Positions 1,710-37,212 of a stretch of DNA of 64,000 nucleotides are shown here, piece by piece; the first letter of the stretch is position 1; each line of letters opens with the position of its first letter. Below the pieces are notes generated by a model. That model did not search any database. It saw nothing but the letters and a program-made list of their open reading frames with translations, and had not been told where the DNA came from. Origin of the DNA: Oehlia diaphana (taxonomy: Eukaryota > Glomeromycota > Glomeromycetes > Glomerales > Glomeraceae); contig QZLH01000369.1 in NCBI GenBank assembly GCA_003833135.1, forward strand, positions 1-64,000. The letters are read 5' to 3'. Both the position numbers and the translations under genes were made by a program.

Positions 1710-3239
1710 TTACCAATTTCCCAAATCATATTTCGGAATAATAAAGACATTATAAATTTCTTTTAGTTCTTTGAACTTAAGACGATGATTATTTTTCAAA
1801 CAATTTAATCCCAAAAATCTTAAAGAATTCGTTTTCTTTGTATAATCGATAATATAATCGAAATCTGAATCGTTATATTCTACTGGTTGATTAATAATTA
1901 TAGTTTCCAGTGAGGCTTTACAATTTTTAAATAAATGTTGAAATTTGTCCGTACTAAAAGATCTTTTTGGCTTAAATAATTGACCGATATTAATATATTT
2001 TAACGAAAGAGGTAAATGTGAACCTAATGAATTATAAAATTGATCGATTTCACTATCTTTTAAAACCATATCCGTTAAAGTTAACTTTTCTAAAAAGTTT
2101 AAATGATCTAATAAATTAAATAAATTATTTGATTCATTATATTCTAATTCACTAAAATGAAATTCTACAATATTTGAACATCCTATTGAGATTGATCGAG
2201 GTGCAGCATTTTTTAACACATTAAGATAAAGATATTGTAAAGTGGTGTTATTTCCAAGTGTTTGAACAAGCGTTACTATATTTGAAGAAGATCTTGATGT
2301 TTCTAAATGTAATTTCTTTAAACGGAATTTTGATTTTAAAGAACTTCCAAAAGTGGAACATCTGCAATCTAAAAATTTGAGACTTTCTAAATTAACACAT
2401 TCTGATAAAATATCAAAAATATGATCATTAATAAAGACTCTACAAAGGAAAAGAGAGGTTAAACTATTTATTTGTGATTTCAAAGCTGGTAAAATAATTT
2501 CTTCCCTATAAATCATATCATTAGGTCCATAATATTTGAAATCTTGAAGATTTGGTATAGCGAAAATTATATCTTTCATCGCTTTATTAACAGCCGTTGA
2601 ATCACATTGTCTAAAATCTAAAGATTTAATATCTTTACAAACTGCTGGAAGGAATTTTAAAAGATCCAAAGTATTATTATTACTTTCTTTGATTCGATAA
2701 GAACATTCGTCAAAGAATAAACATGAAAATTTGATAATTCTTGATAAATGAGGAGATTGAGAAAAAATTGTATAATCTGGCATATTTTTTGAAATAATAG
2801 AAAGAGCTTCTAATCTTGAACATTTTCTCATTAAAAGATTACACAAGGCCTTTGTTATCCCATATACCTTCGGATTATTAGGTGAAGAAGTAGATAACTG
2901 ATCTTTAATTTTAATCCATAATTCTACAGCTGACTTTAATCGATTATATTTAAATTCTGTTAAATAACTAGCATAATCGAAAAAAGGTTTTGGTAAATCA
3001 GGAAGAATAATATCTTCTTCTATTAAAGACTTGTCTTCATCCTCTAAACATGAAATATAAGTTTTAATAAGTTTTGCTTCTTTGGATGCCGTGCTAAAAG
3101 GTCGAGCCCATAAATAAGGTATAGCATTTCTGCACCAAGAACGACTCACAAGAATACAAGAATGCAAACATTGTATATCATTTGCTATATTTTGAAATAT
3201 CATGAGAAGACATTCTGTCGGTATGAGAACTGGTGGCAT
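1710..3239 (-). CDS. F-box protein with leucine-rich C-terminal region
   Basis: Single-exon reading frame of 509 residues if it starts at the ATG at 3239 (MPPVLIPTECLLMIF). The frame is open 50 residues further upstream, but that part is translated poly-T/A and is unlikely to be used. Residues ~5-48 look like an F-box (IPTECLLMIFQNI, then LHSCILVSRSWCRNAIPYLW), the segment that binds Skp1 in SCF ubiquitin ligases. The rest has irregular leucine-rich repeats of the type LESLKFLDC and LKKLHLETS, a likely substrate-binding surface. Such F-box/LRR genes form large expanded families in Rhizophagus-like fungi (family knowledge). The target is unknown. Confidence 0.85.
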   Translation of the reverse strand: MPPVLIPTECLLMIFQNIANDIQCLHSCILVSRSWCRNAIPYLWARPFSTASKEAKLIKTYISCLEDEDKSLIEEDIILPDLPKPFFDYASYLTEFKYNRLKSAVELWIKIKDQLSTSSPNNPKVYGITKALCNLLMRKCSRLEALSIISKNMPDYTIFSQSPHLSRIIKFSCLFFDECSYRIKESNNNTLDLLKFLPAVCKDIKSLDFRQCDSTAVNKAMKDIIFAIPNLQDFKYYGPNDMIYREEIILPALKSQINSLTSLFLCRVFINDHIFDILSECVNLESLKFLDCRCSTFGSSLKSKFRLKKLHLETSRSSSNIVTLVQTLGNNTTLQYLYLNVLKNAAPRSISIGCSNIVEFHFSELEYNESNNLFNLLDHLNFLEKLTLTDMVLKDSEIDQFYNSLGSHLPLSLKYINIGQLFKPKRSFSTDKFQHLFKNCKASLETIIINQPVEYNDSDFDYIIDYTKKTNSLRFLGLNCLKNNHRLKFKELKEIYNVFIIPKYDLGNW

Positions 3240-4760
3240 TTTTTTTTGGAAAAAAAAAAAATTTTTTTTTTTTTTGTACGGAGACAAGGGGTATATATAC
3301 TGTATATATACATATATTTTGCTCCAAATATGGAAATTATATACAGTAAGTATTTTTGGATTCCGCGATTCCGGGAGTAAATAAGCCACGCCTAACCTAA
3401 AAAATTTTTTTTTCCCGAACGTATTGTCTACATTATTTGCATTTTGTATTTGTTCATTTTTTTGTTACATCGGTAGCAGTTTAAATTCCGAACTTTTTTT
3501 GGGCTGAAAATATAATTAGCCATTAGACCCATCGGACGCAGTAAATTTATACTAAAACGTCATCAAGTTGCCAAATCTGTGGGCTCTGTGTACCTATTAT
3601 TATTATTTAATATTATTTAATTTTTTTTAAGAATTATCATTATTAAACAATGTGGTGTAATTAAATAAATTCAATTCATTATTCAAAAAATTTCATGATA
3701 TTTTCATCGATGAAAACAATCCCTATTTATTTTATAATATTAAAATTCTGAATAATAATAAATTTGGTAGAAGGAATCATCCTAAGAATTCCGGAATTAA
3801 ACCCGGATTAATCCGATTTGGAAAAAAAATCGGATTTAATTCCGAATTTATTAAACAATTCCAAATTTCAGATCAGGTTTAGAGAAAGTCTGGAAGAATC
3901 CGGATTCATGCCTTACTAAAACGATAAAAACAAGAACAGAAAGGTAAGATTATATATTTGTATATATAACATACTAGTTTTTTTTAACGGTAAATCTGTA
4001 ATAGTAAGCAATTAATGAAATTTGTAAATCATCATATATATCGTATGATTATTTTTCTCGTAATACACGAGCCAAAAACTTCACGTATCTTTGGTGGGCT
4101 CTAGCCTTAAATGGAGTTTAAATCTTACAATCGTATTACCCTTCCATTGATAATAATTTTCTTCTTAAGAAATCTCATAATAATCTATTAACAATTTTGA
4201 TGTCACTTTTTGACTTTTTGACTTTTTGTGGTGTGAAAATATAAGTTTCGCAATGACCATTTAGAATGAATCTTTTTATAATTTTTTTGATATTTTTTTA
4301 ATGATATATTTTCACTCATTATTATTAAATCACGGAATATGTATTTTTAAAAGGTATACCATTTGATAAATATAAACGAATCTAAGTTTCTTAATTTATA
4401 CTCCTCAATGAAAATTATTGGTTAGAATTTTACTTTAGCTTGTGATAAAATGCATAAGATGTTTAACTTTATTTTTTTTTATGTATACTGTATATAGTTT
4501 ATAATCACCAGTTGACTTGCAGTATTACAGTAATTGTCCATTACAAATAGCGTAGTTTTTTTTTTCAAAAGTGATTTTTTTTATTTATTTTTATTTATTA
4601 TTTATTAATTATTTACTTATTGTGTGATACTAATCATACTATATCTTTTAAACTCAAGTCACGTGATTTCGGATCCAGTCCCAATCCCCATGTCCCCATA
4701 AAGCTGTAAAAGCGTAACATTATTTATAGTTTTAGACAATAATAAGATATTTCTCGTCTT

Positions 4761-7489: not shown

Positions 7490-8070
7490 ATGGAACTATA
7501 TACTCGTCCATTAATCTTTCGCTCTTTAAAGGGTTTACAACTTTTATTCGCTCTTGCATGTCTATCTCTAGGTAATTTAATTCTTTTCAAATCTTTTCAA
7601 TCATTTAAAAGTTTTTAAAATTTTAAAAATTTTAATTTTATTTCGATAAAAAAATATGTAGAAATAACACAAATTGTTGAATCTTCGAAATATACGACGA
7701 TACCATTTAAATACTTTGGAGATTTTAAGTAAGTTGATAAAAAAAATCTTTGGCTTCATAATTATAAAAAATCAATTCATTAAATAAGTCATTTTTTTTA
7801 AAATTTATTAGTAATCTCGGAATGAAGATATTCTTTTATGTTATAATTCCGATAACAATACTTACTGTTGGTAACTATTGTTTTTTTTCAAAGAATTTAA
7901 TATTTTTTTTTTCTATTTGATTCATATTTTAATTATACAAATTTTTTTTCAAATTAAATGATAGGATGGTATTTAATAAATTTTGATTCTTATTGGAGAA
8001 ATCCGTCAGCTTATAGAAATGTAGGAATTGATAGGTAACGATAAATGATAACCATTAAAAAATTTCTTTC

Positions 8071-8101
<31 letters not shown>

Positions 8102-8113
8102 ATTATTTTTAAA

Positions 8114-8151
<38 letters not shown>

Positions 8152-8586
8152 ATTATTACTAAAATTTTTTTAATTTTTTTTAAACAAAATTCATTTAGTT
8201 TTTTAACAATATTATGGGTAGTTTCAGGTATATAAAAAATATAATTCAACAATATATATATATCATTAACTAAAATTAAATGTTCTTCCCTTTTTTTTTT
8301 AGGATTAACAAATATAATTCCAATATATTACGGAATTATGTTAATATGTCCAACGACAATGACATCACTTGATCATATTTATGAAAGACGATTAGTATGT
8401 CAAACATATATAGCGAGTATGTCAATTGGATGGGCTAATGCAGCATTATTTATGGTATCGACATTATTTTCATGGAGATTATCAAAAGAATTAGAATGGA
8501 GAGGTGCAATAACTTCATTTAATAGACAATCTTCTATTAGTCAATTTAGTAGGAGAAACAGTAATCGAACATCATCAATTCCATAA
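7490..8586 (+). CDS. four-TM cluster protein 1 (divergent member)
   Basis: Six exons assembled by hand: 7490-7571, 7662-7728, 7812-7870, 7965-8034, 8199-8227, 8303-8586; phases 1-2-1-2-1; 196 residues. An upstream ATG at ~7463 gives a nine-codon frame ending just before this start. TM1 is residues ~9-27. The loop opens with EITQIVESSKY in place of the usual E-x-x-K-x-x-L-F. TM2 (KIFFYVIIPITILTVG) is in an exon of 59 nt instead of the usual 26-29. TM3 is SFLTILWVVSG. The second loop has C118 and C135 (C-x16-C). TM4 is followed by a Ser/Arg-rich tail. It lacks the INEL-type motif of its neighbours and is the most diverged copy. Function is unknown to me. Intron 4 carries a large T/A palindrome. 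Confidence 0.8.
8070..8153. repeat. tandem T(n)A(n) palindromes in intron 4 of cluster gene 1
   Basis: Two successive blocks, about T12-A20 and T18-A20, each followed by ATTATT-type sequence. Each block is a perfect T-A inverted repeat able to form a hairpin. The second block looks like a duplicate of the first. Confidence 0.8.
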
Positions 8587-9554
8587 TATTAATTGCATAA
8601 ATTCTTTTGATCTAGAAAAATGAACAATCTATAAACGTTTAATTATTATAAATCCGGCATAATATAAAATATATATTTACATATACAGTATATATACATA
8701 TACATATATATATACATATAATATTAGTCGTTACTATTTTTTTTTTTATAATTGTAAATAATAAATCCTTAAATGTATTTCTTGCTTATATTACGTAATA
8801 TGTAATATTAAAAAAAAAAATCATTTTTAAATAAGTTTTTCCATATGTAAGAAATTAGAAGGGAAGGATGTAATACCATTCTTCATACATATTGCATTTT
8901 ACGTCCTACAAATAAAATCAATTTTTTTTTTGTTGTTATCTAATCTACGAGGTAATAACTGAATATATTCTTTGTTTAAAAAAGATGAGAAATTTGAACG
9001 CCCCTGTGTTACATACATATTATATATATATATATATATAAACATTACACTAAAATAACAACATACGATATGTGTTAGATGATAAAAAAAAAAAAGAGTT
9101 TGAATTGAATAAGATAGATAATAAAAAAGGGGGTTATCCAGCGGTTATACTCTTTTATATAAATATCGTTATTTTCATGAATGTATATATTTTTATTTTT
9201 ACAATAAAGTTTTAATTCTAATAATCTTCTAAAATTCCAAATGCATCATAGAAAACTTACTGTGCTATTATCGTTAAGAAATGCATAAAATGCATAATGG
9301 CGCATATACATTTATGACTCACGTGATAACCCATTTTGTTTTTTTTAAAAAGAAAAATTAATTTTTTAATAATTTTTTAATTACGTTCAATATAGTCATA
9401 ATAGCATAAGTGCATAAACACCTTCTAATATATATGCACTCTTCCCCCTTTTAGAATGCACGCCATGTACAATATAGTACCCGAGTTTCTTTTTTACTCC
9501 CTTAATTTTTATTGTATGTACATAAATAGTATTTGATACTATATAGAACGTTTT
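8587..9554. other. intergenic between convergent cluster genes 1 and 2
   Basis: Holds (TA)n tracts near 8680-8720 and 9018-9040 and poly-A runs. It should contain both 3' UTRs. No gene seen. Confidence 0.6.
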
Positions 9555-10723
9555 TTACGGTTCTGTAAAAATTTTACTTTCATTTTCCTGACCATTGTTT
9601 TCACCTTTTTCATCTATTATGATACTTTTCAAAATTTGTCGTACGAAACAACAAGCGCAAATCATAGTTAATAATGAACAAATACCTAAAATCCATAAAC
9701 TAATTAAATTTATAGTATTAATTTTACAAATATTATAAAGTACTGGATATTTATAAGGAAAATTTGATGGGCACATGAATGGTATTTCAACCTACAATAA
9801 ATAAAATGAAAAATTACTCGTTATAAACAGTACGGTATATATATAAAATAAATAATAAAATTCATTTATATTATTATTACCTGCGAATATTATCCAGCAA
9901 AAAGAAAAAAAACTATAAAAGAAAAGAAATGAATTACTTAACTGTTAATATATACAAAATGTATACGAATATTTATTATATTTACATATACAAATATTTA
10001 TTATATTATACGAATATTTATTATATACGTATACAAATATTTATTATATGCATATACAGTCAACTCTCTATAAATGCACCCCCTTGGGACTGGATAAAAG
10101 CGTGCGATTACAAAGGGTATGCATTTATAAAGAGTAAATAATTAGAGGTCATATATACTTGGGACTGAATCAAAGTGTGCATTTAAGAAGGGAATGCACT
10201 TATAATTAGTGCATTTATAGAGAGTTGATTGTACAAATATTTATTTTTTACCTTATTCCCAGAATATACGATTGTAATGATCTTTTATTTACCATAGAAT
10301 AACATACACGTCCAGAAAATACTATAAGATAAGATTCATTTAAGATATTCGTTTGTTATTTTATCGAAAAATAAAATTTTAATATTTACCGATATTTAAA
10401 AATCCAAGAAGAAAATAACTGTTTTACGAAAAAAATCGTTATTAACTAATGAGAAGAATAACGAGAAATAACGAGAATAACTTTTTCTAACATGCGATAA
10501 CTCACGCGAATTCCAAATTAAGATTCTTTAATTGGATATTATACATATTAAATTCAATTAATTTCCATAATCCTAAAAAAAAAACGGAAATTTATCGTAA
10601 AAGTGAACTCGTAAACAATATATCATTATAGGTTAGGTATTTACCAATAATAAAGCATATAATTGTTACAGGGAATTGGATCGAAATCATTAAATTCAAT
10701 ACGGGAGAAAATTTCGAATCCAT
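9555..10723 (-). CDS. four-TM cluster protein 2, last junction irregular
   Basis: Exons by homology to the other copies: 10645-10723, 10506-10572, 10390-10418, 10261-region exon from 10320 down to 10251, 9881-9912, and a last exon ending at 9555. Exons 1-5 join in frame with the family phases and encode TM1 (MISIQFPVTIICFIIG), the loop GLWKLIEFNMY, TM2 and SFFSFCWIIFAG. The last exon encodes VEIPFMCPSNFPYKYP, C-x14-C, TM4 and an acidic tail. Splicing exon 5 to the obvious acceptor (9791) gives an immediate TGA. A read-through of exon 5 with a 42-nt phase-0 intron (donor near 9833, acceptor 9792) would restore the frame. So this is either an altered gene or a recent pseudogene. Intron 4 holds a MITE. 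Confidence 0.6.
10057..10231. mobile_element. 175-bp MITE, pogo/mariner-like ends
   Basis: Terminal inverted repeats of about 23 bp starting CAGTCAACTCTCTATAAATG, with the far end reading as CAATCAACTCTCTATAAATG on the other strand (one mismatch). TA dinucleotides flank both ends (10055-10056, 10232-10233), the target duplication of Tc1/mariner/pogo elements. The interior repeats degraded TIR-like segments (GCATTTATAAAGAG). It has no coding capacity and sits in intron 4 of cluster gene 2. A related copy lies at 15502. Confidence 0.85.
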
Positions 10724-11191
10724 CGTAAATAATAGTGTAATAATTTTACAGAATATTGGATGAAAGAAAAAAAAGAAAAAATTTGTAAACAGTAGAAGAA
10801 ATTTTAAACGATTCCATTTATATCATTCTCAATCAAATGTTTCAAGTTCTTTTTTAGAGTTTGAAGACTTGTTGACTTTTTTTAATATAATAAGTAAAAT
10901 ACAATATCCATAGTTGAACACAAACCGATGATAATGCTTATCTAGGTACGACAAGCGTGGTACAAATGAAAAACATTCAGATACGCGTATCGTAAGTTTC
11001 GGTAATTTAGTGTTTAAGGCTTTGAAATTATAAAATATGTGATAATATGGGATATGGGATCTCCAAGTGATCTCCACAACCTGCCTTCTAAAATTGTCAA
11101 TTATTAATTTATTATTATCTAATATATACAATACAATATATGTTACATATTATGAAAAATTAATCTATTGTTCGCAAAATAATATGATTTG
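10724..11191. other. intergenic, start region of cluster gene 2
   Basis: Spacer between the first exon of gene 2 and the 3' end of gene 3, both minus. A 100-codon open frame at 10829-11131 (-) has no TM or family motif and overlaps the expected promoter, so I do not call it. Confidence 0.55.
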
Positions 11192-12182
11192 TTACTTTTT
11201 TATATTTTTCGATTCTTTATCCACCTTTTCACTTTTTTCTGAATCGTTATCCTCAATACCAAACCCAAACCATTCGTTATATTTAGATTCAGGAATATGC
11301 ATTGCAAAAGTTGCAAGTATAGTACTAATAAACATTAACCACATACAAATTAAATTTGATATTCGTATTTGACATATAAATTGAAGTCTTGGAAATGAAT
11401 ATTTATAATTAGATGGACAAAAAATGGGCACATCTCCTAATTCACCAATTGTTTTATATGTATAAACAACTTTTTTTTTTAATAAATGATGAGTAAATTA
11501 ATTAATAATTTCAATCTTTTTTTTTTTTGATATAAAAAATATAAAATTTATAATCCTTACTTGGAACAATTATCCATAATGATGTTGCTACACTGCGAAA
11601 AGAGATAATTAAGTTAGAAATAATGAAAGTAAAATAAAATAAAATAAATCAAGTAATTACCTAAATTTCCAATTTAATTGTTTTACATTATTGCAACAAC
11701 AACGAAAACCTAAAGTTATCGTCAAAGCTAGATTTTATTGAATTTATTAAATTAATTGAAAATTACAATTATATAATATGCTTTGTTAATAATTATACTT
11801 ACAAATTTGAAAGAGTAAAAGGACAAAATACCTTGTTTTAAATAAATAAAAAAATAAAAAATCAGATGAATTTAATAATAATAAAAATAATAATAATATC
11901 AAATATCTGATTCTACTTACGAATATTCTACCTTTTCATTAATTGGTAAATTATATTCTTTAAATAATATGATTTTCTTGTATTCTATAATAATATCGTG
12001 TAATTTCAATTAGATTTAATTATTTGGTTAAAATAAGAAAGTGTTAATCATATATTCATACCAAGAGCTGGAGTAATAAAAATTAATGGAAATTGAATCA
12101 TTATGATAAAACACACGAAACATATTGTAAAGGCCATTGCTAAATAATTTGGTTGTTTACGTGCGGTTGTATGAGTGGCCAT
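11192..12182 (-). CDS. four-TM cluster protein 3
   Basis: Six exons: 12062-12182, 11921-11984, 11803-11831, 11661-11727, 11561-11592, 11192-11469; sum 591 nt, 196 residues, all GT-AG, phases 1-2-1-2-1. The N-tail MATHTTARKQPNY is cytosolic by prediction. TM1 ~14-39 ends in PALG; the loop is EYKKIILFKEY; TM2 spans exons 3-4 (YFVLLLFQISLTITLG); then a CCC motif and NNVKQLNWKF. TM3 is SVATSLWIIVPIVYTY. The second loop is TIGELGDVPIFCPSNYKY with C122 and C137 (C-x14-C), then RISNLICMW opens TM4, and an acidic/Lys tail follows. Intact by every check I could make. Best reference copy for the family. Confidence 0.85.
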
Positions 12183-13323
12183 AATGATTGTTTTCTTGTT
12201 GTAATTCTTCAATTATCTTTGTTTAATCAGATCGTTATTAAAATTAAAAAGAATATCTTCTTTCACATATTATATTTTTTTTTTTGATTTCTCTTTTTTT
12301 TTTATCGTAAAAGAAGCCACTTTCTTGTATGTAGCCCTTTATATCAAGCCACATATCTCATTTATAATTTAAAGGCTTTTTTTTTTTTGATAATCAGTGA
12401 TGAAAGTTTCTTAACCAATTATTGCGTTTTTTAAATTACATATTTACTATATAATGTTATAATTATTATTTTCTTTTCTTTGTGCGTAAAAAAATTGAAT
12501 TTACTTAAGATGTCGTGTCAGAAAATCAGAATAATCGGATGTCGTGCATCAATTAACTTGGGGATCTTCGTCACTTTCAGGTTTGGACTTTCAACTGTTG
12601 AAAAAGTCAAGGAAAAAGTGATATTATTAAGAGACAATAAACTATTTGTAATATATATTTTAAATCAATCTAACTAATTTTAACTATTTTATCATATATA
12701 TATATATATATATACGCCCGATTTCATGCTATTTCAGAATTTAGTTAGTATATATGCATATTCGATGTTCTTATTTACCATATAAATCTAGATAGTATCA
12801 TAGAATTTGCCGGACCTATAAGTGATACGAAATAATATGAATACACTTTCTACTAAAAAGGTACCTAAGTCGACACAAAGCGCAGCATACAACTTAGCAT
12901 AAATTAATTAAAGTCTTTGAAGTTCAAAAAAAAAGTATTTCGACTTTTCTTTTCTTTTTTAGTTACAAAGAAAAGATTTGAGACAAGATTCGTGGCAAAA
13001 AAAATATATATATAAATATATTATATATGTTTTTCCTAATAATTATAATAACTTTACCTACGTGTCATTTGACAAGCCTTATTTATAGATTATCTCTAAA
13101 TTGGTTATGTGTTTCCACATAATTGAGGAATATGTCTAGTTTTTATAGAATGTTCGTTCCAAGGACGGTATTAAAAATTATATATATATCTAAACCAAAT
13201 CGATTTTTAAATTTTTAAACCTTTTTTTTTTTTTTCTTTTTTTTTTTCTCAAAAAAGAAAATTCATTCTATAACTTCTATTACTTTTCGGTTTCTTGATA
13301 ATCTTTAGCATTTAATCGATCAC
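12183..13323. other. intergenic between cluster genes 3 and 4
   Basis: AT-rich; a (TA)n tract near 12692-12712 and a poly-T/pyrimidine block near 13220-13250. A 65-codon frame at 12480-12677 (+) has no supporting feature. No gene called. Confidence 0.6.
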
Positions 13324-14245
13324 CTACACTTTTATTCCTTTATAAATTTTGTCAGGAATATACGTTGTAATTGTTACGAGTGAATTGGATAAAAACAATA
13401 ACCACATACAAATTAAATTTGCTGCTCTAACTTGACATACAAAGCGTGCTGCTTTAGATGAATATCCATAATCAGACGAACATAAAAATGGAGTTTCTCC
13501 TAATTCTTTTCCAGCAAAGTAAGTGTATACGGCTTGATTATCGTGAACATTAACCGTTAAATGAGATTATTTTTTTTACAACGATAAAGAAAAAAGAGTT
13601 TGATTAGAAAATTGCATTCATTTATCTTCTTACTTGCAGTGATGAGCCATAAAATTGTCGCAAAACTTTAACGGACAAAAAAAATCACTTTCCGATATTA
13701 ATATGAGTCGATATAAGAAAAAAAAAGGAATTGTTATAAAATAACATTCATACATGAATTCCTTAATCAACCGTTTATTTTTAGTAAAACAGTAACCACA
13801 AAGAAGAATGTACGAGACTAAAATAAAATAATAAAAAATTATTAAATGTTAAAAAAAAAAAATCGATAATTCCATTTACTTACCTAAATGAATCAAATTA
13901 ATGCCTAAATACCTGTTATAATTTAAGTAAAAAATTACCGATTAATTGAAATCAAAAAAAGAAATCAAATTTAGCAACATAAAATAATACTTTACGTGTA
14001 TTCTACAGGTTTATTTAAATAAAGATCACGTCTTTTAAAGAGTTGAATTTTCCAATATTCTTTTATATTACACAATCCAAGCATAAAATATTATTAAATT
14101 TATAATTGAAAGTACCGAATCGATATCTCAAAACAAATTATATATTTATATACTAGCCGAGTAAAGGACAAATGATTACTAAAAGGATAGTAATAAGACA
14201 TACACAAAATATGAAACAACCATACAAAAAGTTTTTTATTGACAT
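13324..14245 (-). CDS. four-TM cluster protein 4, GC splice donor
   Basis: Exons 14158-14245, 13996-14059, 13884-13912, 13754-13817, 13634-13665, 13324-13532; sum 486 nt, 161 residues. TM1 ends in CPLLG; loop EYWKIQLFKRRDLY; TM2 YLGINLIHL plus SYILLCGYC; TM3 FATILWLITATVYTY. Second loop ELGETPFLCSSDYGY with C110 and C125, then RAANLICMW and TM4. The C-tail is very short (PDKIYKGIKV). The only way to keep the conserved phase at the first junction is a GC donor (CTCG|GCTAGT); the nearby GT would create a stop. All other introns are GT-AG. Confidence 0.75.
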
Positions 14246-15252
14246 TTTTATATTTAAACCTTGATAATTTTAAATTTTACGCGGAAAAGATAAACGCGAT
14301 AAATTCGAATAACTACAGTATATAAATTTGATAAACTATAAATTTTACAAGCTTTACATATTGTTAAATGACGTTCGATAAAATACATAGATACACAAAT
14401 TGCACTTTGAATACTTTGGATAAATTGTCAAAATACGCGCCACTTTTTATGAAAATTGATTTATATTAAGCCTTAAAATGTTGCACGATATTAATCTTGA
14501 GATATAAATGTTTGTGGCGCTAATAAAATTTATTACAGACCACTAAAGTAAAGTCCTTGAAAAAAAATATATAATGAAAGATTCGAAGGATTTATATATT
14601 TAAAACGATTTCGATAAAGACAAGCCATCGTTATTGTTGAAAAACTTGATTGTCAATTCTTCAAATGTTCCTGTTTTTATTGATTTTTATGTTATTACAA
14701 AAATATAATTGATATTAAAAAAAAAAAAAGTGTTTTTTAGGTATAATAATCTTTACGAAACCTTTACTTTCTAACAACATTTAGAAAGAATTCAAAGATG
14801 ATTAATTAATACACCCGCAGCGATTTGAATCGCGAAATATCACGTGAGCAAGAGAGAGAATACCAGTTTTGCGACACAGCCGTAAACTTTGCCACATTTA
14901 TAATAAATTAAGACAATAAAAAGGCTGGCTATTTTAACTATTTTAAACAGAAAATTTTATGTCAGAATCGCATTAAACTGTATTTTATGTATAATCAGCC
15001 TTTATAGGCTTAGGCGCTTAGCAAATGAAAATGAATTACATTCAAATATAATTTATATATTAAACACAACGAATAATAAACATGTGATGATTTATAGCTT
15101 TTTTAAGTTTCCTACAAAAGAAAAATAAATGTTGTAAAAAAAAAATTACTTAATCTCTTTCACTTTTTTTTTTTTTTTTTTTTGCATGAATATCGGTTAA
15201 GAAATTTAAGGAGTTTTTTTTTTTTTTTTTTTTTAAGAAAAATACCATCACT
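14246..15252. other. divergent promoter region of cluster genes 4 and 5
   Basis: Genes 4 (-) and 5 (+) start at its two ends, so it should hold both promoters. It includes one TCACGTGA palindrome (14840) and long poly-T runs at 15162-15234 just before the start of gene 5. No ORF of note. Confidence 0.6.
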
Positions 15253-16326
15253 ATGTCATTTAAGTCATTTGTTAGTTTGATCTTCGGTATACCGTTTACG
15301 ATACTTATTTTCGTTTGCCCAATTTTAGGTACGATAAAAAATTCTTGACAAATAATTTTCTTTCTTTCAATAATAAAAATTTCTTTTTTTTTTTATAAAT
15401 TTATTAGAAATTGGAAAAATTGAATTATTTAGCAGAACAGATGGAATACTTACATATGATACGAACGTTGAATATACGTAGGTTTATTATCTTTTTCGAT
15501 ACAGTCAACTCTCTATAAATGCACACCCTTTGTAATTGCACAGTCCCAGGGGAGTGCATTTATAGAGAATTGACTAATATATATATATATATATATTTAT
15601 ATGTATGTATATTTATATGTATGTATATTTATTTGTATGTTTACAAGATTTTTTCAGATTGTATACTTAAAAAAAGAATCTTTTTTCGTATTAAATTCAG
15701 CTACTTGGTTCTCTCATTAATTGCACCTAGTAAGTGTAAAAATAATTTTCGCGTTTATTTAATTTATTAACCAATCACGTGTCATGATGTTTTTTGCAGG
15801 TGTGCTGATATTGGTGTATTTTTTTAAATGTCATTGGGATAATGTTTCACCTATGACCGCAAAAATACTTTTAGTTGCTTATCTATTTGGTTGTATAGGA
15901 ATTTCTAGTAAGTTATTTCAAATTTAATATTTCATTTAAAAAAAATAGCATATTTTTATTAGAGTACTCACAATTAATAATAAATATATCGTAGTCGCAT
16001 ACACAATTTTCACAATTAATGAATTAAGGGGAATACCATTTGGATGTCCAGATAGTTACCATTATGTGTTACCACAAGTTCAAACAGCATGCCAAGCACG
16101 TGCAGCAAATTTTGTATCAATGTGGGCTTTCGTGTTCTTCTTAATATTGAATGTCATATTATTAGTATTTGGAATGGGTCCATTAGAAAGTGAATTATTC
16201 GCTGATATTGGTAAGCGAAAACTACCAAAGTCTGACACTTCCACACAGCCTCGTGACAGTGGTAGTGAACCATTTAGTCAGATCGAATCTGGACAACAAC
16301 AACAACAGAAAGACGAAAAAGAATAA
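15253..16326 (+). CDS. four-TM cluster protein 5, intron 4 missing
   Basis: Five exons: 15253-15328, 15408-15477, 15701-15729, 15800-15907, 15995-16326; 615 nt, 204 residues. The fourth exon (108 nt) equals exons 4 plus 5 of the paralogues, so one intron was lost here or gained in the others. TM1 IPFTILIFVCPILG; loop EIGKIELFSRTD; TM2 YLVLSLIAPSVLILVYFF; TM3 ILLVAYLFGCIGISIAYTIF. Second loop INELRGIPFGCPDSYHY with C112 and C127, then RAANFVSMW and TM4. The longest tail of the family: Ser/Asp/Gln-rich and ending in QQQQQKDEKE. Intron 2 carries a 74-bp MITE. Confidence 0.85.
15502..15575. mobile_element. 74-bp MITE related to the one at 10057
   Basis: Starts TA|CAGTCAACTCTCTATAAATG and ends with the inverted GTGCATTTATAGAGAATTGAC. 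The interior (ACCCTTTGTAATTGCACAGT) is the reverse of part of the 10057 element, so they belong to one family. The right-hand terminal base differs, so the TA flank is less clean there. Lies in intron 2 of cluster gene 5. Confidence 0.8.
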
Positions 16327-16955
16327 AAAATACTTGAATTGTAAATTTGTGCATTAAGACTAGAATTTTTGTGATTGATCCAATTAGGAATATATTTAAT
16401 TCTCCGCGTGGGTAACCGTAGAAATAGGTTGAATGTTGGGGAAAGGGAAGCTAATAATAGTGATGAACGATTTTAATATTTTTATTTTTATTTTTACTTT
16501 ATTATTTTTTTTTGGTTTATTTTATCTTTTGCATAATTGTAACTTATTTAATCATTTAATTATCACGTGATCAGTTAAGTTACGTGAAACTTTTTATTTT
16601 TTTTTTGAATCCGTTTAATAAATCAATGTAGTTAATTATTATACAGCAATTTTCCCAGTTTAACTCGAATTGGTTTATTGAGAGATAACGTGTGAAAGAC
16701 ACGATGTAAATTTAATGGTGGCTGAGGTCGCTAAGCCGATTGACAAAAAAAATTAAGCCTGAATTTCATGTGGCTATGTAATATTTTTTTTTTATAAAGC
16801 AAGTTTCGCTTTGAAATTAAAATTTATCAATTCGTGAAACAAATTTGTTAATTTGATTATAAAACATTATGATAATTACACAAAAATAAATTTTTTTTTT
16901 AAGTTCACCTTATTTCTCATCAAAAATTGGGAATTAAGAGGTAACGAAAACGAAG
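16327..16955. other. intergenic between tandem cluster genes 5 and 6
   Basis: Poly-T rich, with one ATCACGTGAT palindrome (16562). No gene seen. Confidence 0.6.
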
Positions 16956-18455
16956 ATGGGAAGTTTTATAAGATATATATTAGGTGGATTAGTTGCAATA
17001 TGGTTATTATTGGTTATATTGGCTCCAATAACAGGTACTGTATACCACCATTATGAATAATATATATTATTAAATCTTTTTTATGTATTTTATTTTTATT
17101 TTTTAATTTAAAAAATTTTTAGAAATTGGGAAAATCTTAATATTTAGGATGATTAGTAAAGAAAATCAAGTAGAATTAAATCGCGTTATTGAATATGTGT
17201 GAGTAATATGATTAATTAATTAATAATTAATAATTTCTAAAATTTCTAAAATCAATTTTATTTATTTATTTTTTATGATAAGTTATTTCTTAATTTCATT
17301 TTTTGTGCCATGTAAGTATTTTGGTTTTTTAAATGATTTTTTTTTTAGTTTTTTTTTAATCATATTATTATATATATATATATTTATTTATATCTATAGG
17401 GTGGATAGTTGTTACAAACTGTTGCGTATGTTTTGCACAAAAAGGAATATTAACTCCTAAAGAATTAATACGAAAATTAATGTAAGTATTGAAAAAAATT
17501 AAATTTATATATTATATATATATATAATTATATAATTATATACTAATTATTCTAATTGATTCTTATAAAATTTTTTCTAGTTTCATGGTTATAGTTTGGA
17601 TAGCTATTTCAGGTACGAATAATTAAAAATTAATTCATATCAAAAAAGTTGATTTATAATTTACAAGTTGATTGATTTTTTTTTATACATTCTTCACATT
17701 CTTCACATACTTCGCATACTTAATATACTTCATATATACTTCACATACTTCGTATACTTCGTATACTTCACATATACTTCACATACTTCGTATACTTCAT
17801 ATATACTTCATATATACTTCATGTACTTCATACACTTCGTATACTTCATATATACTTCATGTATACTTCACATACTTCATATACTTCATATACTTCACAT
17901 ACTTCACATACTTCGTATACTTCGTATACTTCATATACTTCACATTCTTCGTATACTTCATATACTTCAATATACTTCACATACTTCACATACTTCGTAT
18001 ATTTCATATACTTCATATACTTCATACACTTCGTATACTTCACATACTTCATACACTTCGTATACTTCACATACTTCATACACTTCGTATACTTCACATA
18101 CTTCATACACTTCGTATACTTCACATACTTCATACACTTCGTATATTTCGTATATTTCATATACTTCACGTACTTCACATACTTACTTCGTATAATAAAA
18201 GTTGTTTACACATATTTTACAAAAAATGATATTGGAAATATTCCATCTAATTGTCCACCAGATTATCCATATTCAGAACCAAAACTTCGATTAGCATGTA
18301 TTATAAGAACAGCAAATTATGCTATTATGTGGACGTATACAAGTTTATTAATTATATTTTTAATTTCTGTTTTGAGTGGGGTTTTACCACAAGAAGATGA
18401 GATGAAAAAGAAGGGAAAAGATTTTAATATTAAAACTGTTGTTGAAGGTGTATAA
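16956..18455 (+). CDS. four-TM cluster protein 6, minisatellite in intron 5
   Basis: Exons 16956-17034, 17123-17198, 17283-17311, 17400-17481, 17581-17612, 18202-18455; 552 nt, 183 residues; phases 1-2-1-2-1. TM1 GGLVAIWLLLVILAPITG; loop EIGKILIFRMISKENQ; TM2 YFLISFFVPWWIVVTNCCV; TM3 IFMVIVWIAISGVVYTYF. Second loop NDIGNIPSNCPPDYPY with C117 and C132, then RTANYAIMW and TM4. Tail with KKKGK. Intron 5 (589 nt) is enlarged by a 500-bp minisatellite that lies close to the acceptor. The final exon is also open upstream through the repeat, which makes a misleading 198-codon ORF; homology places the exon start at 18202. Confidence 0.85.
17684..18187. repeat. minisatellite, 9-bp unit TTCRYATAC
   Basis: About 500 bp of head-to-tail TTCATATAC / TTCACATAC / TTCGTATAC units, most of 9 bp and some extended to 11 bp (TTCATATATAC). 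The repeat has no stop codons in several frames, so it produces long spurious ORFs of YTS/HTS or YFI/YFT type on + and KYVKYMKYT on -. It lies wholly in intron 5 of cluster gene 6. Confidence 0.9.
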
Positions 18456-19811
18456 ATAAGAAGGATTTTAAAAAAAGGTAATTACGAGATAGAAGAGTAA
18501 TAATAATTTATTAATAGAGTTAAATCATTTTTTTTTTTTAAAAAAAAAAAAGAAACATTTTTAATTTATATATATATGTTTATACTGTATATGGTTTTAA
18601 TAAACTTTTTTTTTTATTTATAATGAGCTTTTAATTCCGGAGATGCATTTTTCGACGTGACCATCACATAACTACGTGACTTTATGGCGTAATAACCTAT
18701 AAATAGGACTGGCCTGTTCGTAATGTCGTAATGAGAATTTGAGAGAATTATTTATAAGGATTTTTGATGGCTTATGTTTATTATAAACGTGTGTACGGCG
18801 TGTACGGCGTGTACGTAAACATATCGTTAAGCCATAATAAATGGCTTGTATTTTGAAAAGTATATGATTATGTTATAATCCGACATCCGACGTAAACTAA
18901 ATTTTGAACGATATTATTTTGATTTCATTCTTTGATTGGTAGAATCGAACGTAATGAACGTAATCTTATACTGTACTTTTCATTCGACAGATAAATAAAT
19001 AAAAAAATATTTTGCTTAATTTTTTAAGTATGGTCAAAGTTTTTTCTACGGTTTAGCAAGAAATATGAATTAGGAATTGTCAACAAATATGTGATGCTAC
19101 ATGATGAACATGAATTCAAAAGATTCTTTTAAAGAAACTTTTAAAAATGAATTCAGGATTGCCCAATACGACTTGACCAAATTAAGATTTTGTATCCTAA
19201 ATCCTAAACCTAAACCAAAAAATGAAACATTGTAAATCATTGTATTCATTGATTATCGATTCGGATAGATTTTGTCATCTGACATTCATTCAACGGATAT
19301 CTTTCAATCTGGCAATAAATTTTGTTCGAATAATATAAATATATAAATAATAAGTAATATTTTTCTTTTATAAACCAGAAAATAAAGTTTACTAAATTTA
19401 TTTGACTACATTAATAACAGAAATATTTAAAACTGCATGTTATTTATGTTATATACAATCCAAACAGAAATTATCCGTAACGGATAGCGCCCTTATATTC
19501 ATTCTATCGGATGGCCGGATTGGATCTTTACGATCTGTTATGAAATTGACGCAGTAATTTAAAGGGCTTATCTATCTATAGATGTGAATTTACATAATAA
19601 GTCGAACTTTTTTAGTGGCGTTCTCTTTTCTATTTATTGGCCAATTGAACTTTGCCATATTTGTTCTAGTTTAATAGATTTTTTTTTTCTTTACCGTAAT
19701 TTCCGTAATTTGAACAAAAATTTAATACTCTTACCTTTTTTAAAGATAACGGATAATTACATTTAACTAAATTATTGTTTAATAATAAAACACATGTATT
19801 GATTAATTTGC

Positions 19812-19842
<31 letters not shown>

Positions 19843-19905
19843 AATTTTTTTTAAAAAAAAAATTTTTTTTTAAAAAAAAAAAAAAATAAAGGGTTTTAAT
19901 TTCTA

Positions 19906-19952
<47 letters not shown>

Positions 19953-19995
19953 AATTTCTTTTACAAAAATAATTTTTTTTGTAAAATAAAAAAAA
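18456..19995. other. intergenic between cluster genes 6 and 7
   Basis: AT-rich; contains TGTACGGCGTGTACGGCGTG (18790-18810), a small GC-richer repeat. The last 190 bp before gene 7 are stacked T/A palindromes. A 60-codon frame at 19584 has no support. Confidence 0.6.
19811..19988. repeat. stacked T(n)A(n) palindromes upstream of cluster gene 7
   Basis: At least four alternating T and A runs of 8-28 nt, directly followed by the ATG of gene 7 at 19996. Same design as the block at 8070 and those near 29215-29795. Confidence 0.8.
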
Positions 19996-20993
19996 ATGAC
20001 AGGTTTTATAGTCTCAATTTTATTTATTGTTTTTATTATTATTCATATTCTCTTATTATTTGTTTGTCCGTTTTTAGGTGTGTTTGATTTTATATATTAT
20101 ATTGAGAAATTTTTTTCAGTCTTAATTCCCATGTTTTACATATTTATTTTATTATTATTATTATTTTTTTGAATAGAAATTTGGAAACTAAAATTATTCA
20201 GTGACAATCAACTTTCTACTAATTTATTAGAATATATGTAAGTATATTTAAAGTATATTTTATTAATAAAACTTAATAAACAAATTCCTTTAATGAATAT
20301 CTTTATGTAATTACAGTTATTTAGCTCTTATTTCATATCAGATTGGTAAGTATAAATTTATATCATGATTCATTCGTTCTATCATATTTGCCATATTTGT
20401 CATATTTAACATTTTGTTAACATTTCTCTCTCTTTTTTTAGTTATGCATATTATTATCTGCTGTTTTTTTAATTGGCTTAGTTCTAATGGAGTGAAATTG
20501 ATTTTTATGTAAGAATGTTTAAAAATAATTATATGAATTATATTTTATAATTACTTTATTAAATTTTTATTTTTTTGTTTGATTAAAAAAGCTTGTCAGG
20601 GATACTTTGGTCAATCATTCCAGGTAAAAAATATTATAAATATATATATATATGTATAATGTATCATAATTTTTTATTAATTATATATCTTTTCATTTTA
20701 AAGCCATCTACACATATTTTACCATTAATGAATTAGGAAATGTTCCATTTCTTTGTTCACAACTTATTTGTAAGATTAGAGCAACAAATTTGATTATAAT
20801 GTGGATTGGATTTATTACGATATTTTTTATGACAATTTGTATCGTTTTTTTTGAAAATGAGAAATTAAATTTATTAATGGGTAAAAAGAGAAAAATTAAT
20901 AGTAATAAAAAACAAAAGAGACCAAGAAAAAATAGTAAATGTAGTGAAGTAGGAGCAAAATTGGTAAGTTTGGATAATGATGTTGAAAGTTAA
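19996..20993 (+). CDS. four-TM cluster protein 7, shortened cysteine loop
   Basis: Exons 19996-20077, 20177-20237, 20317-20345, 20442-20508, 20592-20623, 20704-20993; 561 nt, 186 residues; all GT-AG, phases 1-2-1-2-1. TM1 ends in FVCPFLG; loop EIWKLKLFSDNQL; TM2 YLALISYQIVMHIIICC; TM3 LSGILWSIIPAIYTYF. Second loop INELGNVPFLCSQLICK: the two cysteines are only four residues apart (C108, C113) instead of 14, because the YPY segment is missing. TM4 follows RATNLIIMW. The tail is strongly basic (GKKRKINSNKKQKRPRKN), probably cytosolic. Confidence 0.85.
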
Positions 20994-21020
20994 AAAGTTA
21001 AGTATTATTATTATTAATTA

Positions 21021-21142
21021 TATCACGTAAAATTCACGTAAAAATTCACGTAAAATATCGTAAAATTCACGTAAATTCACGTAAATTCACGTAAAATATC
21101 ACGTAAAATACCAACGTAAAATATCATGTAAAATACACGTAC
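21021..21142. repeat. degenerate tandem repeat of (AT)TCACGTAAA
   Basis: About ten imperfect copies of TTCACGTAAA / ATCACGTAAA in 120 bp, 30 bp after the stop of cluster gene 7 in the 3' region shared with convergent gene 8. Confidence 0.85.
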
Positions 21143-21261
21143 TTGTCATTACTTGTCGTATTGTATAGTGTATAAACTTGTATATATTATAATATATGTA
21201 TATATTTAATATCATATATATCTATTTATTTAATTCTTTTTGAAATAACTGTAAATATATT

Positions 21262-21346
21262 TTTCTTTCCTTCTTCCTTCCTTCCTTCCTTCCTTCTTTC
21301 TTTTTTCTTTTCATTCTTTTTATTATTTATATATTTTTTTTATTTT

Positions 21347-21426
<80 letters not shown>
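21262..21426. repeat. pyrimidine tract ending in a 74-nt poly-T run
   Basis: CTTC repeats (CTTCCTTCCTTCCTTCC) at 21268-21296 followed by T-rich DNA and an uninterrupted run of 74 T at 21353-21426. The exact length is probably unreliable in any assembly. Confidence 0.85.
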
Positions 21427-21428
<2 letters not shown>

Positions 21429-21657
21429 CTTTATTATTATTATTATACGGTATTATTGTTAATTAAATTTATAAAAAATTATCAATTTAAATTACAAAAT
21501 TACATTTCATTATAGCAGAGCTTTTTCCCCACGAATTGCAAAGATTTCCTTTTCCTTTACTTCCTTTACTTTAATACTTGGTTCATCTCTAGTTATCCCT
21601 TCCTCTTATCCTTCGCGATCGGGTTTGAATTTTTAAATGTTAAGAATGAAAAAAAAA

Positions 21658-22631
21658 TTAATCCTTACCATCATTATCAATTCCAACCATATCTTTATAA
21701 GTTTTTTCAGGAACGCACATTATTATAGTAGCTAATAATGTAATTACAAACATTATCCACATACAAATTAAGTTCGCTATTCTTATTTGACATAAATGTA
21801 AAAGTTTTGAATTTTTATAAGGATAATTTGATGGACAAAATAATGGAATGTCTCCTAATTCATCAATTGTATAATAAGTATAAATACCTAAAAAAAAAAA
21901 GAGAATATTAAAAATTTTTTAAATATGAAAAAGAAAAATATTATATATATATATATATATTATTATTACATATATTTACTTGGAATAACAAACCACAAAA
22001 TTGTTGCGATACTAAATATAAAGAAAGAAATATTTAATATTTTATATATTTTTTTTTAAATAAAAAATCAAATTATTTTTTAGAGATGTTTTTTTTTGTT
22101 TTATTAAAAAATATTACCTAAATTCCAGATCAAGTTGTTTTCTTTCGAAAAAACAGCAAAAAATAATCAATAATAAATGTAAAGCTAAATGAATAAATAA
22201 TATTCATTAATACTTTAAATGTTAATTATCATATATACATATATTTCTTACCAATATGAAAGAACGTTAACATCAAATACCTTTTATGTTATAATTAAAA
22301 AAAGAAATATGGTGTGAGAGGTGTAAGATTAAATAAGAAATTGAATAAAATTTTTTAGTACTTACATATATTCTATAGGTTTTCTAATTGGAATTTCATT
22401 CTTTTCGAAAAATTGTAATTTAAAAAATTCTTTTAAAAAAAAAAGAAAGAAATATAAAAGAATTTACTCTTCGATTAATTAATTAATTAATAAAAAAAAA
22501 AATCAATTTATTTATGATTTTTTACCAAGAATTGGACATATAAATATCAAAGAAAATTGAATTATGCATATAAAACAAAAAATTATTGAAATTGTATATA
22601 TCATGGCATAATTTGGTCGAGTCGCCGCCAT
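21658..22631 (-). CDS. four-TM cluster protein 8
   Basis: Exons 22526-22631, 22366-22429, 22252-22280, 22118-22184, 21980-22011, 21658-21887; 528 nt, 175 residues; all GT-AG, phases 1-2-1-2-1. N-tail MAATRPNY, similar to that of copy 3. TM1 ends in FICPILG; loop EFFKLQFFEKNEI; TM2 YLMLTFFHIALHLLLIIFCCFF; TM3 IATILWFVIPSIYTYY. Second loop IDELGDIPLFCPSNYPY with C117 and C132, then RIANLICMW and TM4; acidic tail ending GIDNDGKD. Copies 3 and 8 are the closest pair I see by eye. Convergent with gene 7. Confidence 0.85.
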
Positions 22632-23884: not shown

Positions 23885-25225
23885 TTACGAAAATAACAAC
23901 GAACTATACCTGCCTTTTTGGAATTCATGAACTTCAGGATATATTTTCTTTACCCAACACTTTGCTTCCCTCCATTGCTCGAGATTATCAAAATACATGT
24001 GAAAAGAATGACCATCGGGCTTGTACCACCAACAAAACGTGTTCAAGTTCATATAACATTCCATCACCTGTTCGTTACCCCAGGTTTCAACCGCGTCTCC
24101 ATTGATTTCAAGAAACTTTTTGTCTCTAGAGTTTTCGCGTCCACAAGCATACATAAAAAGTGTATAATAAGAATCTAAATACGTAATTCTTGTTTGTAAA
24201 TCAGGGCGATAAGGCACATTTATCCATTTAAGACGTTGAGAAATTCCTAAAAGGTAGATTACTTTTAAGCACATAAATTTTAATAACCCATGATTACATA
24301 TTTATTACCATGATCCCAGAACCATATTTCGACGATCCAGTCTCTCAACAGAGCTCGTCTTAATACAGGACGATAATCGCCATCACCACTAACAATTACA
24401 ATTATGCCGGGTCTTTTATGTTCTTGAATTGCGTCACTAATAGAAGCCCCTAGCTCATTCTGATCAAAGACTGTTACTTGACATCCAAGATTTTCAAGTT
24501 CCCTCCATATCGAATCGTTCGTCGGTGGACACGACCCAACAATAACTGGGTTATCACCTATTTGTCGTCCGTTCAGAACCGTTTTCAGAAGCCGACCGTA
24601 ATCGATATAAAGTTGATCCTCATAAACATTTTCAAGGTTGCTAATTAATTGCTTTCCCTCGATTTCAATATTAGGATTATCAATAAAAATGTGTACTAGT
24701 CCGGTGGGTTCTCTTGAAAAATCTACAAAGAAAATATTTACATAAATCCTGCGAAACAACGGTTATCAAAAAGTTAACTATTCACTTACCGGTTGCACCG
24801 GATTGCTCTACAATGTGTTTTTTTCGGGCGGGTTGACGATAAGATACAGGAAAGAAAAGCACAAGATTAGTAAGTATTCGGTGTTATATAACAGACAGCC
24901 AAATCATATAGAACGAGTAAGAAATACTACGAAAACAATTAAATAACATGTGAGGTGTACAAACGATAAACTATATTTAGAACTTACTTTGACTATTTAA
25001 CTTATTAATTAAGTTGACAAGCTTAGCTCTTGGCCCCATTCGAATGTTACATTCTTTAAACCTTTCTTCGTTTAACATAAGAAAGCTTTCACCATCAATC
25101 CCTTGATCACGAAAAATTCCAAGTTCATTTTCGTTAAGGCCAAATTTTCCATTCATGAAAGTGATAAGAGCTTCCATGTCATATTTTTTAACATCTTCAT
25201 ACGTAACACTTAGAGTTGTAGACAT
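23885..25225 (-). CDS. SAM domain + NYN (PIN-like) nuclease-type protein
   Basis: Four exons: 24988-25225, 24790-24807 (an 18-nt micro-exon), 24309-24722, 23885-24246; 1032 nt, 343 residues, phase 1 throughout. Residues ~8-78 are a SAM domain (YDMEALITFMNGKFGL, then FRDQGIDGESFLMLNEE). After a short KQSGAT linker, residues ~93-250 form an NYN fold: HIFIDNPNI (D100) and IVIVSGDGDYRPVL (D199, D201) match the metal-binding acidic positions. The central V-D of many NYN domains reads A-S here (GASISDAI), so activity is uncertain. NYN proteins act on RNA and SAM domains mediate oligomerisation (family knowledge). The C-terminal ~90 residues include a Cys/Trp-rich part (NTFCWWYKPDGHS) that I do not recognise. 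Confidence 0.8.
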
Positions 25226-36211: not shown

Positions 36212-37212
36212 TCAAAACCCACCAACACCAGGCTGATGAAGTTTCTTATTTCTTGGGGACTTATTAGTTTGTTGTGGCTTAATATAATTCCAAAGTAGGT
36301 TTTCATACATCTCTCTAGGAAACATTAATGAATATGGTCTAACTGCATTAGAAAAACTCTCGCTTGAAATTTCATTAAATCTGATTAATTCAACAAGATT
36401 TTTTACAATTTCCCACAACTCATCGAAATTCTCTTTCTTCCATTCGTTAACATTTTTTTTACATAAATTATTAGAACATTTATGAGTTCCCCAATTAATA
36501 ACATATTCCCATATTTTAACTTCTTCCATTTCTATATAATCCCTTTTCAAGAAATTAATCAATATTTCTTCACTTAAATTAATAAAATCATCAGAGTTAA
36601 ATAATGTTTCAGGATTTTCACAGATTTTTTCGACGCAAAATTCTTGGAGATTTTTACATTCTAAAAATTTTCGAACAAATAGATAAATTTTAATTAAATC
36701 ACTTTTAATCCAAGAATTAGCAATAGATAACAAATGAGATTCTGTAAAATTCATTAATTCAGGTAACATAAATTCATCTGTAGAAGACAATAAATCTAAT
36801 AATTCCGACGTAGTAAGTTCGTTAAGTGACACCGTACCACAATACAAGTGTCTAAGGTATTGAAATATTGAAAAAAAAATTTGAATTTTTTTTAACGATT
36901 TTTATTACTTTTTATTTTTTTTTTTTTTTTTTATAAATAATTTACGTACTTGAGTATGATATCAAAATTTATTGGTGAAACATTTGGTTTGTCAAAAATA
37001 ATTTTATCTCCATCTTTTTTAATCCAATCACTTGATAGAGCAGCTTGAAAATATTCTGATTGTGTACTTAAAATTAATGAATGTGCGTAAAATGTTTTAT
37101 AATTTGATTCGTTTCCAACATTTATTATCATATCATGATTTTTATCCGAATTTGTAAGTAAATTTTCAAAATTTTTGCTTAATCTAGCTAATAACAAAAT
37201 TTCTGATGACAT
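36212..37212 (-). CDS. BTB/POZ + BACK protein 2
   Basis: Two exons, 36950-37212 and 36212-36851, phase 2; 903 nt, 300 residues. BTB ~18-120 (DMIINVGNESNYKTFYAHSL, YFQAALSSDWIKKDG), BACK ~125-240 (WEYVINWGTHKCSNN). After BACK the protein reaches FPREMYENLLWNYIK, the usual entry into the hinge before TLDc, then ends with a short basic tail (SPRNKKLHQPGVGGF). The TLDc domain is missing. Roughly two thirds of residues match BTB gene 1 over the shared part by eye, so they are tandem duplicates about 2.7 kb apart. Confidence 0.85.

What the first reader, a model, noticed from the sequence alone, without database searches (positions are those of the whole stretch)
7490..22631. Cluster of eight (plus one at 63200) paralogous four-TM genes of an unrecognised family
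Hand assembly gives nine genes with one shared plan: TM1 ending C/A-P-x-x-G, a loop starting E-x-x-K-x-x-(L/F)-F and ending E-Y, TM2, TM3 followed by Y-T-x-(F/Y), a second loop with (N/D)-E-L-G-x-x-P and two cysteines, then (R)-x-x-N-x-x-x-M-W into TM4. The topology suggests both loops are on one face of the membrane, with a disulfide-closed second loop, like claudin, MARVEL or tetraspanin designs. That similarity is in layout only. The copies differ strongly in their tails (acidic, Gln-rich, Lys-rich), which suggests diversified partners.
Basis: partly seen in the sequence, partly recalled or inferred. Interest (0 to 1): 0.8.

Follow-up and report, generated by a model that had tools for sequence, protein, structure and literature searches.

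The report
Divergent MARVEL-like fungal membrane-protein cluster
What is probably a mycorrhizal fungus carries an old cluster of four-pass membrane-protein genes that look like a distant branch of the widespread MARVEL membrane-organising proteins rather than a wholly new family.

Summary
The genes are real. I rebuilt nine (g1-g9): six exons each (g5 lost one intron), intron phases 1,2,1,2,1. A spliced profile scan of the window found these loci at 76-410 bits and nothing else above 41; one shuffled window reached 36. g6 is letter for letter a Rhizophagus diaphanus record, and g1, g5 and g8 have 95-97% identical R. irregularis records, which supports their exon joins.

The g1 clan lists Pfam MARVEL in 7 of 9 members at E <= 0.1, best 4e-7; the rows whose scores I saw are under the curated cut-off. 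The g2-g9 clan has no MARVEL match (0 of 15). The clans are tied by profile-profile comparison (94.8%, E 4.9e-8; 0 of 120 block-shuffles as good) and by introns: intron 1 splits the same glutamate codon in 15 of 15 models compared. UniRef already names several orthologues MARVEL.

Best reading: a divergent MARVEL-related lineage organising membrane domains or vesicles. 'Unrecognised' and 'layout only' are not upheld. Function is inferred; structure searches were inconclusive.

The parts
7490..8586 (+). g1: MARVEL-type four-TM gene (clan B), exons 7490-7571, 7662-7728, 7812-7870, 7965-8034, 8199-8227, 8303-8586; 196 aa
   Evidence: Gene model; Pfam MARVEL E 0.0073, residues 13-158 on profile 9-135; R. 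irregularis P0010 97%, F. mosseae P0012 with precomputed PF01284
9555..10723 (-). g2: clan A copy, broken: exons 1-5 readable, exon 6 out of frame; likely pseudogene
   Evidence: 76.5 bits, stop inside the scan's reading
11192..12182 (-). g3: clan A gene, six exons, 196 aa; tail with 9 D/E and 7 K/R in 32
13324..14245 (-). g4: clan A gene, six exons, 161 aa; intron 1 begins GC instead of GT
15253..16326 (+). g5: clan A gene, five exons (intron 4 lost), 204 aa, tail with 7 Q in 49
   Evidence: R. irregularis P0014 97%, R. clarus P0016, G. cerebriforme P0018, F. caledonium P0019
16956..18455 (+). g6: clan A gene, six exons, 183 aa; intron 5 holds a 9-bp minisatellite
   Evidence: identical to R. 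diaphanus C1646_684450 (P0013); minisatellite
19996..20993 (+). g7: clan A gene, six exons, 186 aa, tail with 12 K/R in 41, short loop 2
21658..22631 (-). g8: clan A gene, six exons, 175 aa
   Evidence: R. irregularis P0001 95%, R. clarus P0002, G. cerebriforme P0004
63200..64000 (+). g9: clan A gene, six exons, last exon cut by the window end; 167 aa when completed from L007

Best explanation
The cluster holds one MARVEL-type gene (g1, clan B) and eight copies, one of them broken, of a sister clan (g2-g9, clan A). The two clans share an ancestral six-exon gene with intron phases 1,2,1,2,1. Clan A is a divergent MARVEL-related lineage, found in the searches made here only in Rhizophagus, Glomus cerebriforme, Funneliformis and metagenome records. 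The proteins are four-helix membrane proteins. Helices 1-2 and 3-4 are joined by two short loops, presumably on one face, and the 3-4 loop has two conserved cysteines (disulfide inferred). The tails, presumed cytosolic, differ between paralogues. By analogy with fungal and animal MARVEL proteins they most likely pack into sterol/sphingolipid-rich membrane patches or secretory vesicles, organise or sort other components there, and use the unlike tails for different partners or sorting. Shown: gene structure, four predicted long helices, shared descent of the clans (by profile and introns), MARVEL likeness of clan B. Inferred: sidedness, disulfide, location, function.
For: Pfam MARVEL in 7 of 9 clan B members at E <= 0.1, best 4e-7; P0012 29.2 bits over profile 8-135 of 135. 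Clan A against clan B: hhalign 94.8%, E 4.9e-8 for this single comparison, 142 columns. Trimmed repeat: score 42.6, against at most 38.9 in 120 block-shuffles and 19.6 reversed. Intron 1 at the same column, phase and split Glu in 15 of 15 models; intron 4 at the same column in 13 and the same phase in 14 of the 14 that have it (models chosen as told in the full report). Shared loop-2 cysteines and TM4 Trp invariant in both alignments; the loop-1 Glu invariant in B and nearly so in A. UniRef MARVEL names on clan A and B proteins. Four long helices in the AlphaFold model of P0001, pLDDT 80.6. Conserved orthologues in R. irregularis, R. clarus, G. cerebriforme and Funneliformis. MARVEL roles in fungi and oomycetes: PMC9431316, PMC7343537, PMC12457093 (passages).
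Confidence: 0.68

Rival explanations
1. Clan A is a family of its own, unrelated by descent to MARVEL; its likeness to g1 comes from general four-TM composition and chance.
For: No Pfam MARVEL match for clan A; weak single-sequence scores between the clans; no significant PDB fold match.
Against: Profile-profile score above all 120 block-shuffles; the same five intron phases in the same order, with introns 1 and 4 at the same aligned codons; g1 lies in the same cluster; UniRef MARVEL names for clan A orthologues.
Confidence: 0.17
2. The clans belong to another four-TM type with paired loops (MS4A/CD20, sarcospan, tetraspanin, claudin/PMP22 or connexin-like), perhaps channel-like or junction-like.
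Confidence: 0.1
3. The copies are mostly decaying duplicates with little function.
For: g2 is broken; the C535 copy gives a poor model and several stops; GC donor in g4.
Against: g1, g5, g6 and g8 are kept at 91-97% identity in R. irregularis and 54-81% in more distant species; paralogues are old and separate on the tree.
Confidence: 0.05

Closest known systems
MARVEL domain proteins (Pfam PF01284; Nce102, MAL, synaptophysin, occludin)
   Same: Four TM helices with short 1-2 and 3-4 loops; clan B matches the Pfam profile nearly end to end at sub-cut-off scores
   Different: Clan A is not detected by the Pfam model; it has its own signature (E-x-x-K...F, E-Y-x-Y, Y-T, E-L-G-x-x-P, C-P..C, R-x-x-N-x-x-x-M-W) and a six-exon gene plan; the best own-genome MARVEL match (L004) lies in one open frame of 302 aa
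Candida albicans Mrv8 and its eight-member MARVEL family (PMC7343537, passages)
   Same: A lineage-restricted four-pass MARVEL gene in one fungal group
   Different: No sequence comparison made here; Mrv8 acts in biofilm and epithelial damage, no such data here
Phytophthora infestans PiMDP1/2 (PMC12457093, passages)
   Same: MARVEL proteins of a plant-colonising filamentous organism, in vesicles and at the host interface
   Different: Two MARVEL domains (eight TM) each, oomycete; relation to a host interface is untested here
Claudin / SUR7 / tetraspanin
   Same: Four TM layout
   Different: No family match in 8 proteins; loop 1 about 20 residues with no strands in the model; loop 2 about 28 residues without the tetraspanin CCG motif (motif recalled)

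Membership tests
MARVEL (PF01284), clan B / g1 | Profile match over the whole domain | tested here: inconclusive
   7 of 9 members match at E <= 0.1, best 4e-7; P0012 29.2 bits at profile 8-135 of 135, P0011 23.0, P0010 16.6, under the cut-off of 32.8; P0012 has a precomputed PF01284
MARVEL (PF01284), clan A / g2-g9 | Direct profile match | tested here: not met
   0 of 15 members list MARVEL at E up to 1; 0 of 9 further records at E up to 10. So clan A is filed here as MARVEL-related through clan B, not as a Pfam MARVEL member; UniRef names of P0015-P0018 do say MARVEL
MARVEL | Four TM helices with short 1-2 and 3-4 loops | tested here: met
   Model of P0001: helices 8-46, 52-78, 81-110, 126-156 plus a short 160-167, pLDDT 80.6
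MARVEL | N and C termini in the cytosol | not testable with these tools
   Charge counts by segment are not decisive
MARVEL | Fold of solved MARVEL proteins | tested here: inconclusive
MARVEL | Location in sterol-rich membrane domains or vesicles | not testable with these tools
   Needs microscopy or fractionation
Claudin / PMP22 | Pfam match; loop 1 with beta-sheet | tested here: not met
Tetraspanin | Pfam match; loop 2 with CCG motif | tested here: not met
SUR7 | Pfam match | tested here: not met
   No match in 8 proteins

The most novel reading that the evidence does not exclude
Clan A is an arbuscular-mycorrhiza-specific MARVEL-derived family whose paralogues mark or build distinct membrane domains or vesicle classes, possibly at the arbuscule interface, with the varied tails choosing cargo or partners.
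Probability: 0.15. Interest if true: 0.6.

Novelty: new variant of a known kind. Interest (0 to 1): 0.33.

Why it matters
It moves a set of 'hypothetical proteins' of mycorrhizal fungi into reach of MARVEL biology (membrane patches, vesicle traffic) and gives a cluster of old paralogues, four of them with orthologues in other species, whose location during symbiosis can be tested. It also shows a MARVEL-related lineage that the Pfam model misses and that intron positions help to place.

Tried and rejected
Structure as proof of MARVEL: rejected. Foldseek had no hit at E <= 0.001 for either model. The clan B model was poor (pLDDT 55.4), so its matches mean nothing. VIA-align put many other bundles above synaptogyrin.

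Solved-structure sequence search at E up to 10: clan B found none; clan A found 7 sequences, viral polyprotein or protease chains at E 1.3-1.4 over 29 positions, taken as chance.

Weak Pfam names were judged chance TM matches: DUF2569 (g6 type, E 0.0074), DUF6688 (P0018, E 0.0035), DUF996 (E 0.36), and SLC3A2_N, which 7 of 15 clan A members list (best E 0.011) but only over about 26 residues of TM4. All are below their cut-offs.

Idea of a recent expansion: rejected. Paralogue branches are long, and g1-, g5-, g6- and g8-type orthologues sit in other species (the tool warns that long branches are of unsure place).

Motif-level unity of all nine: rejected for g1.

Profile-to-sequence search between the clans as proof of kinship: too weak by itself.

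Literature: 'MARVEL domain' with 'Rhizophagus irregularis' gave 0 papers; 'MARVEL' with 'Glomeromycotina' gave 0; a mix of locus tags, 'MARVEL domain-containing protein' and 'Rhizophagus', at least two of six, gave 0; 'MARVEL' with 'arbuscular mycorrhizal' and 'transmembrane' gave three off-topic papers, seen as a listing; R. diaphanus gene-family expansion gave one off-topic paper, seen as a listing. Most subscription papers are not held. (a GPCR family) served only to learn the genome's size and contig numbers.

Rows dropped: from the 9 hits, P0003, P0006, P0008 and P0009 (shorter variants or fragments) were left out of the alignments. From the 17, P0003, P0006, P0008, P0009, P0020 and P0021 were left out. 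g2, the second C886 gene and the C33 and C535 copies were left out of A2; L040 and L043 out of A3. My second notebook checkpoint says that all clan B models share the phases; that was too strong (see full report).
Full report
What is there. The window (20-40% GC in 2-kb steps) lies in contig C368 of a 108.8 Mb genome. g6 equals Rhizophagus diaphanus protein C1646_684450 letter for letter (P0013), so the source is very probably that arbuscular mycorrhizal fungus. I read the sequence and rebuilt nine genes. All but g5 have six exons with intron phases 1,2,1,2,1; g5 lacks intron 4. Splice sites are GT-AG except g4 intron 1, which begins GC. g2 is out of frame from exon 6. g9 is cut by the window end and closes in the next stretch of the contig.

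More than chance. A spliced profile aligner that lets introns fall in any phase was run over the whole window and one dinucleotide-shuffled copy. The window gave the nine loci at 76-410 bits and nothing else above 40.8; the shuffle reached 33 (profile A) and 36 (profile B). The profiles were built partly from these genes, so this tests number and place, not independence. Eight loci came up as models of their own; g6 appeared only as exons 3-6 of a chain that began with g5 exons 1-2, and g9 exon 3 was read differently, so the tool is not error-free. Independent support for the joins comes from public gene records: P0013 for g6 (100%), P0014 for g5 (97%), P0001 for g8 (95%) and P0010 for g1 (97%), over full length. 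Whether those records rest on RNA is not known to me. g3, g4, g7 and g9 have no such record among the hits.

Two clans. Genome searches and spliced models show clan A (g2-g9 type) also on C886 (two genes), C371, C144, C33 (partial) and C535 (poor model); further matching pieces on C913, C170 and C1284 were not examined. Clan B (g1 type) has 11 further match places on C170, C141, C33, C194, C734 and C178 at E <= 1, four of them above 0.01; neighbouring places may be exons of one gene. In one search, 6 of 8 clan B genes modelled gave full models with phases 1,2,1,2,1; one was partial but consistent (1,2,1; L043) and one was not (L040, a reading that spans two match places). For clan A outside the contig one model showed the plain pattern (L035), two showed it inside longer, partly spurious chains (L036, L037), and three did not (second gene of L035, L038, L039). 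The comparison kept only plain-pattern models plus the eight whole genes of the window's contig (15 in all), so agreement of phase there is partly by selection; agreement of place is not. Intron 1 falls in the codon of the same glutamate in 15 of 15. Intron 4 is at the same column in 13 of the 14 that have it (g9 is two columns off). Introns 3 and 5 lie 2-3 columns apart between the clans. Intron 2 lies 9-17 columns apart, beside a stretch where clan B has extra loop residues.

Link to MARVEL. Pfam lists MARVEL for 7 of 9 clan B members at E <= 0.1, best 4e-7. For single members: P0012 1.1e-6, P0011 8.8e-5, P0010 0.0085 and g1 0.0073, each spanning nearly the whole profile and each below the curated cut-off. 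P0012 carries a precomputed PF01284. For clan A, 0 of 15 members list MARVEL at E <= 1, nor do 9 further records at E <= 10. Clan A (15 rows) against clan B (9 rows) by hhalign gave 94.8% and E 4.9e-8, for that one comparison, over 142 columns. On trimmed alignments the score was 42.6 (87.5%), with 0 of 120 block-shuffled controls as good; the best was 38.9 (79%), so the margin is real but not huge. Plain profile-to-sequence scores are weak: 19.8 bits against 16.0 for the best of 1500 shuffles one way, and 10.5 against 11.1 the other. UniRef names of clan A orthologues P0015-P0018 and clan B P0010-P0011 read 'MARVEL domain-containing protein' (names as listed). Which signature gave those names was not seen.

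Structure. P0001, folded with an alignment of 12 clan A records returned by the searches, gave four long helices and a short fifth, pLDDT 80.6, pTM 0.72, and no strands. Foldseek had no significant PDB match. VIA-align listed designed bundles (to 11.5), chains of the dystrophin-glycoprotein complex (10.8), connexins (about 10), a chain of the Fc-epsilon receptor (9.6) and CD81 (7.5) above synaptogyrin (7.2), and claudin-4 below (6.0); all are in the range the tool calls common for helical bundles. This neither supports nor excludes MARVEL.

Age. A tree of 32 rows separates the clans with 100/100 support and groups g1, g5, g6 and g8 with records of R. irregularis and others, for g1 and g5 as far as Funneliformis; paralogue branches are long, and the tool warns that such rows are of unsure place. 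Several of these proteins seem to share contigs, judged by equal contig length, or have neighbouring locus tags: P0014 and P0015 (997,104 bases); P0004, P0011 and P0018 (191,481 bases); RclHR1_00720042 and _00720043. So the cluster looks old. Tails are about as conserved as the core between R. diaphanus and R. irregularis and fall to 34-44% in the farthest g5 and g8 orthologues, while the g1 tail stays at 69-91% in the more distant two.

How it may work. MARVEL proteins of fungi sit in plasma-membrane patches and vesicles: Nce102 is proposed as a sphingolipid sensor in eisosome patches and needs its C-terminal region to gather there (PMC9431316, passages); C. albicans has eight MARVEL members, one of them tied to biofilm and epithelial damage (PMC7343537, passages); P. 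infestans PiMDP2 gathers at the haustorial membrane and marks vesicles (PMC12457093, passages). Animal papers tie the domain to sterol-rich membrane apposition and fusion (PMC2805614, PMC8145151, passages). By analogy I take the g1-g9 proteins to be organisers of membrane patches or vesicle membranes, with the paired cysteines bracing loop 2 and the tails giving specificity. The C886 copy has Y-x-x-hydrophobic tail motifs, and P0005 and P0007 have similar ones (read), which would fit sorting; the motif's meaning is recalled, and short motifs occur by chance. All of this paragraph beyond the cited papers is inference.

Verdict. A real, old gene cluster; one member is MARVEL-type and the rest form a divergent sister clan. 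Of modest interest.

Noticed in passing
10060-10228 and 15505-15573: Short element with inverted ends TCAACTCTCTATAAATGCA (up to 1 mismatch), once in g2 intron 4 and once in g5 intron 2; 4 end matches, 0 expected. Looks like a MITE.
   Followed up: partly
17692-18184: 9-bp minisatellite (CTTCATATA, about 53 copies) filling most of g6 intron 5.
   Followed up: no
24280-24759: NYN-domain ORF on the minus strand upstream of g8. R. irregularis record P0020 fuses a NYN part with the last exon of the g8 orthologue, probably a merged gene model.
   Followed up: partly
14158 (end of g4 exon 1): g4 intron 1 begins GC; models on C886, C371 and C734 also hold GC-AG introns, so such donors may recur in these clans.
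   Followed up: no
1710-3389, 32507-33181, 36212-36847, 45763-46884: F-box-like, two BACK and one MYND-finger ORFs, all minus strand.
   Followed up: no
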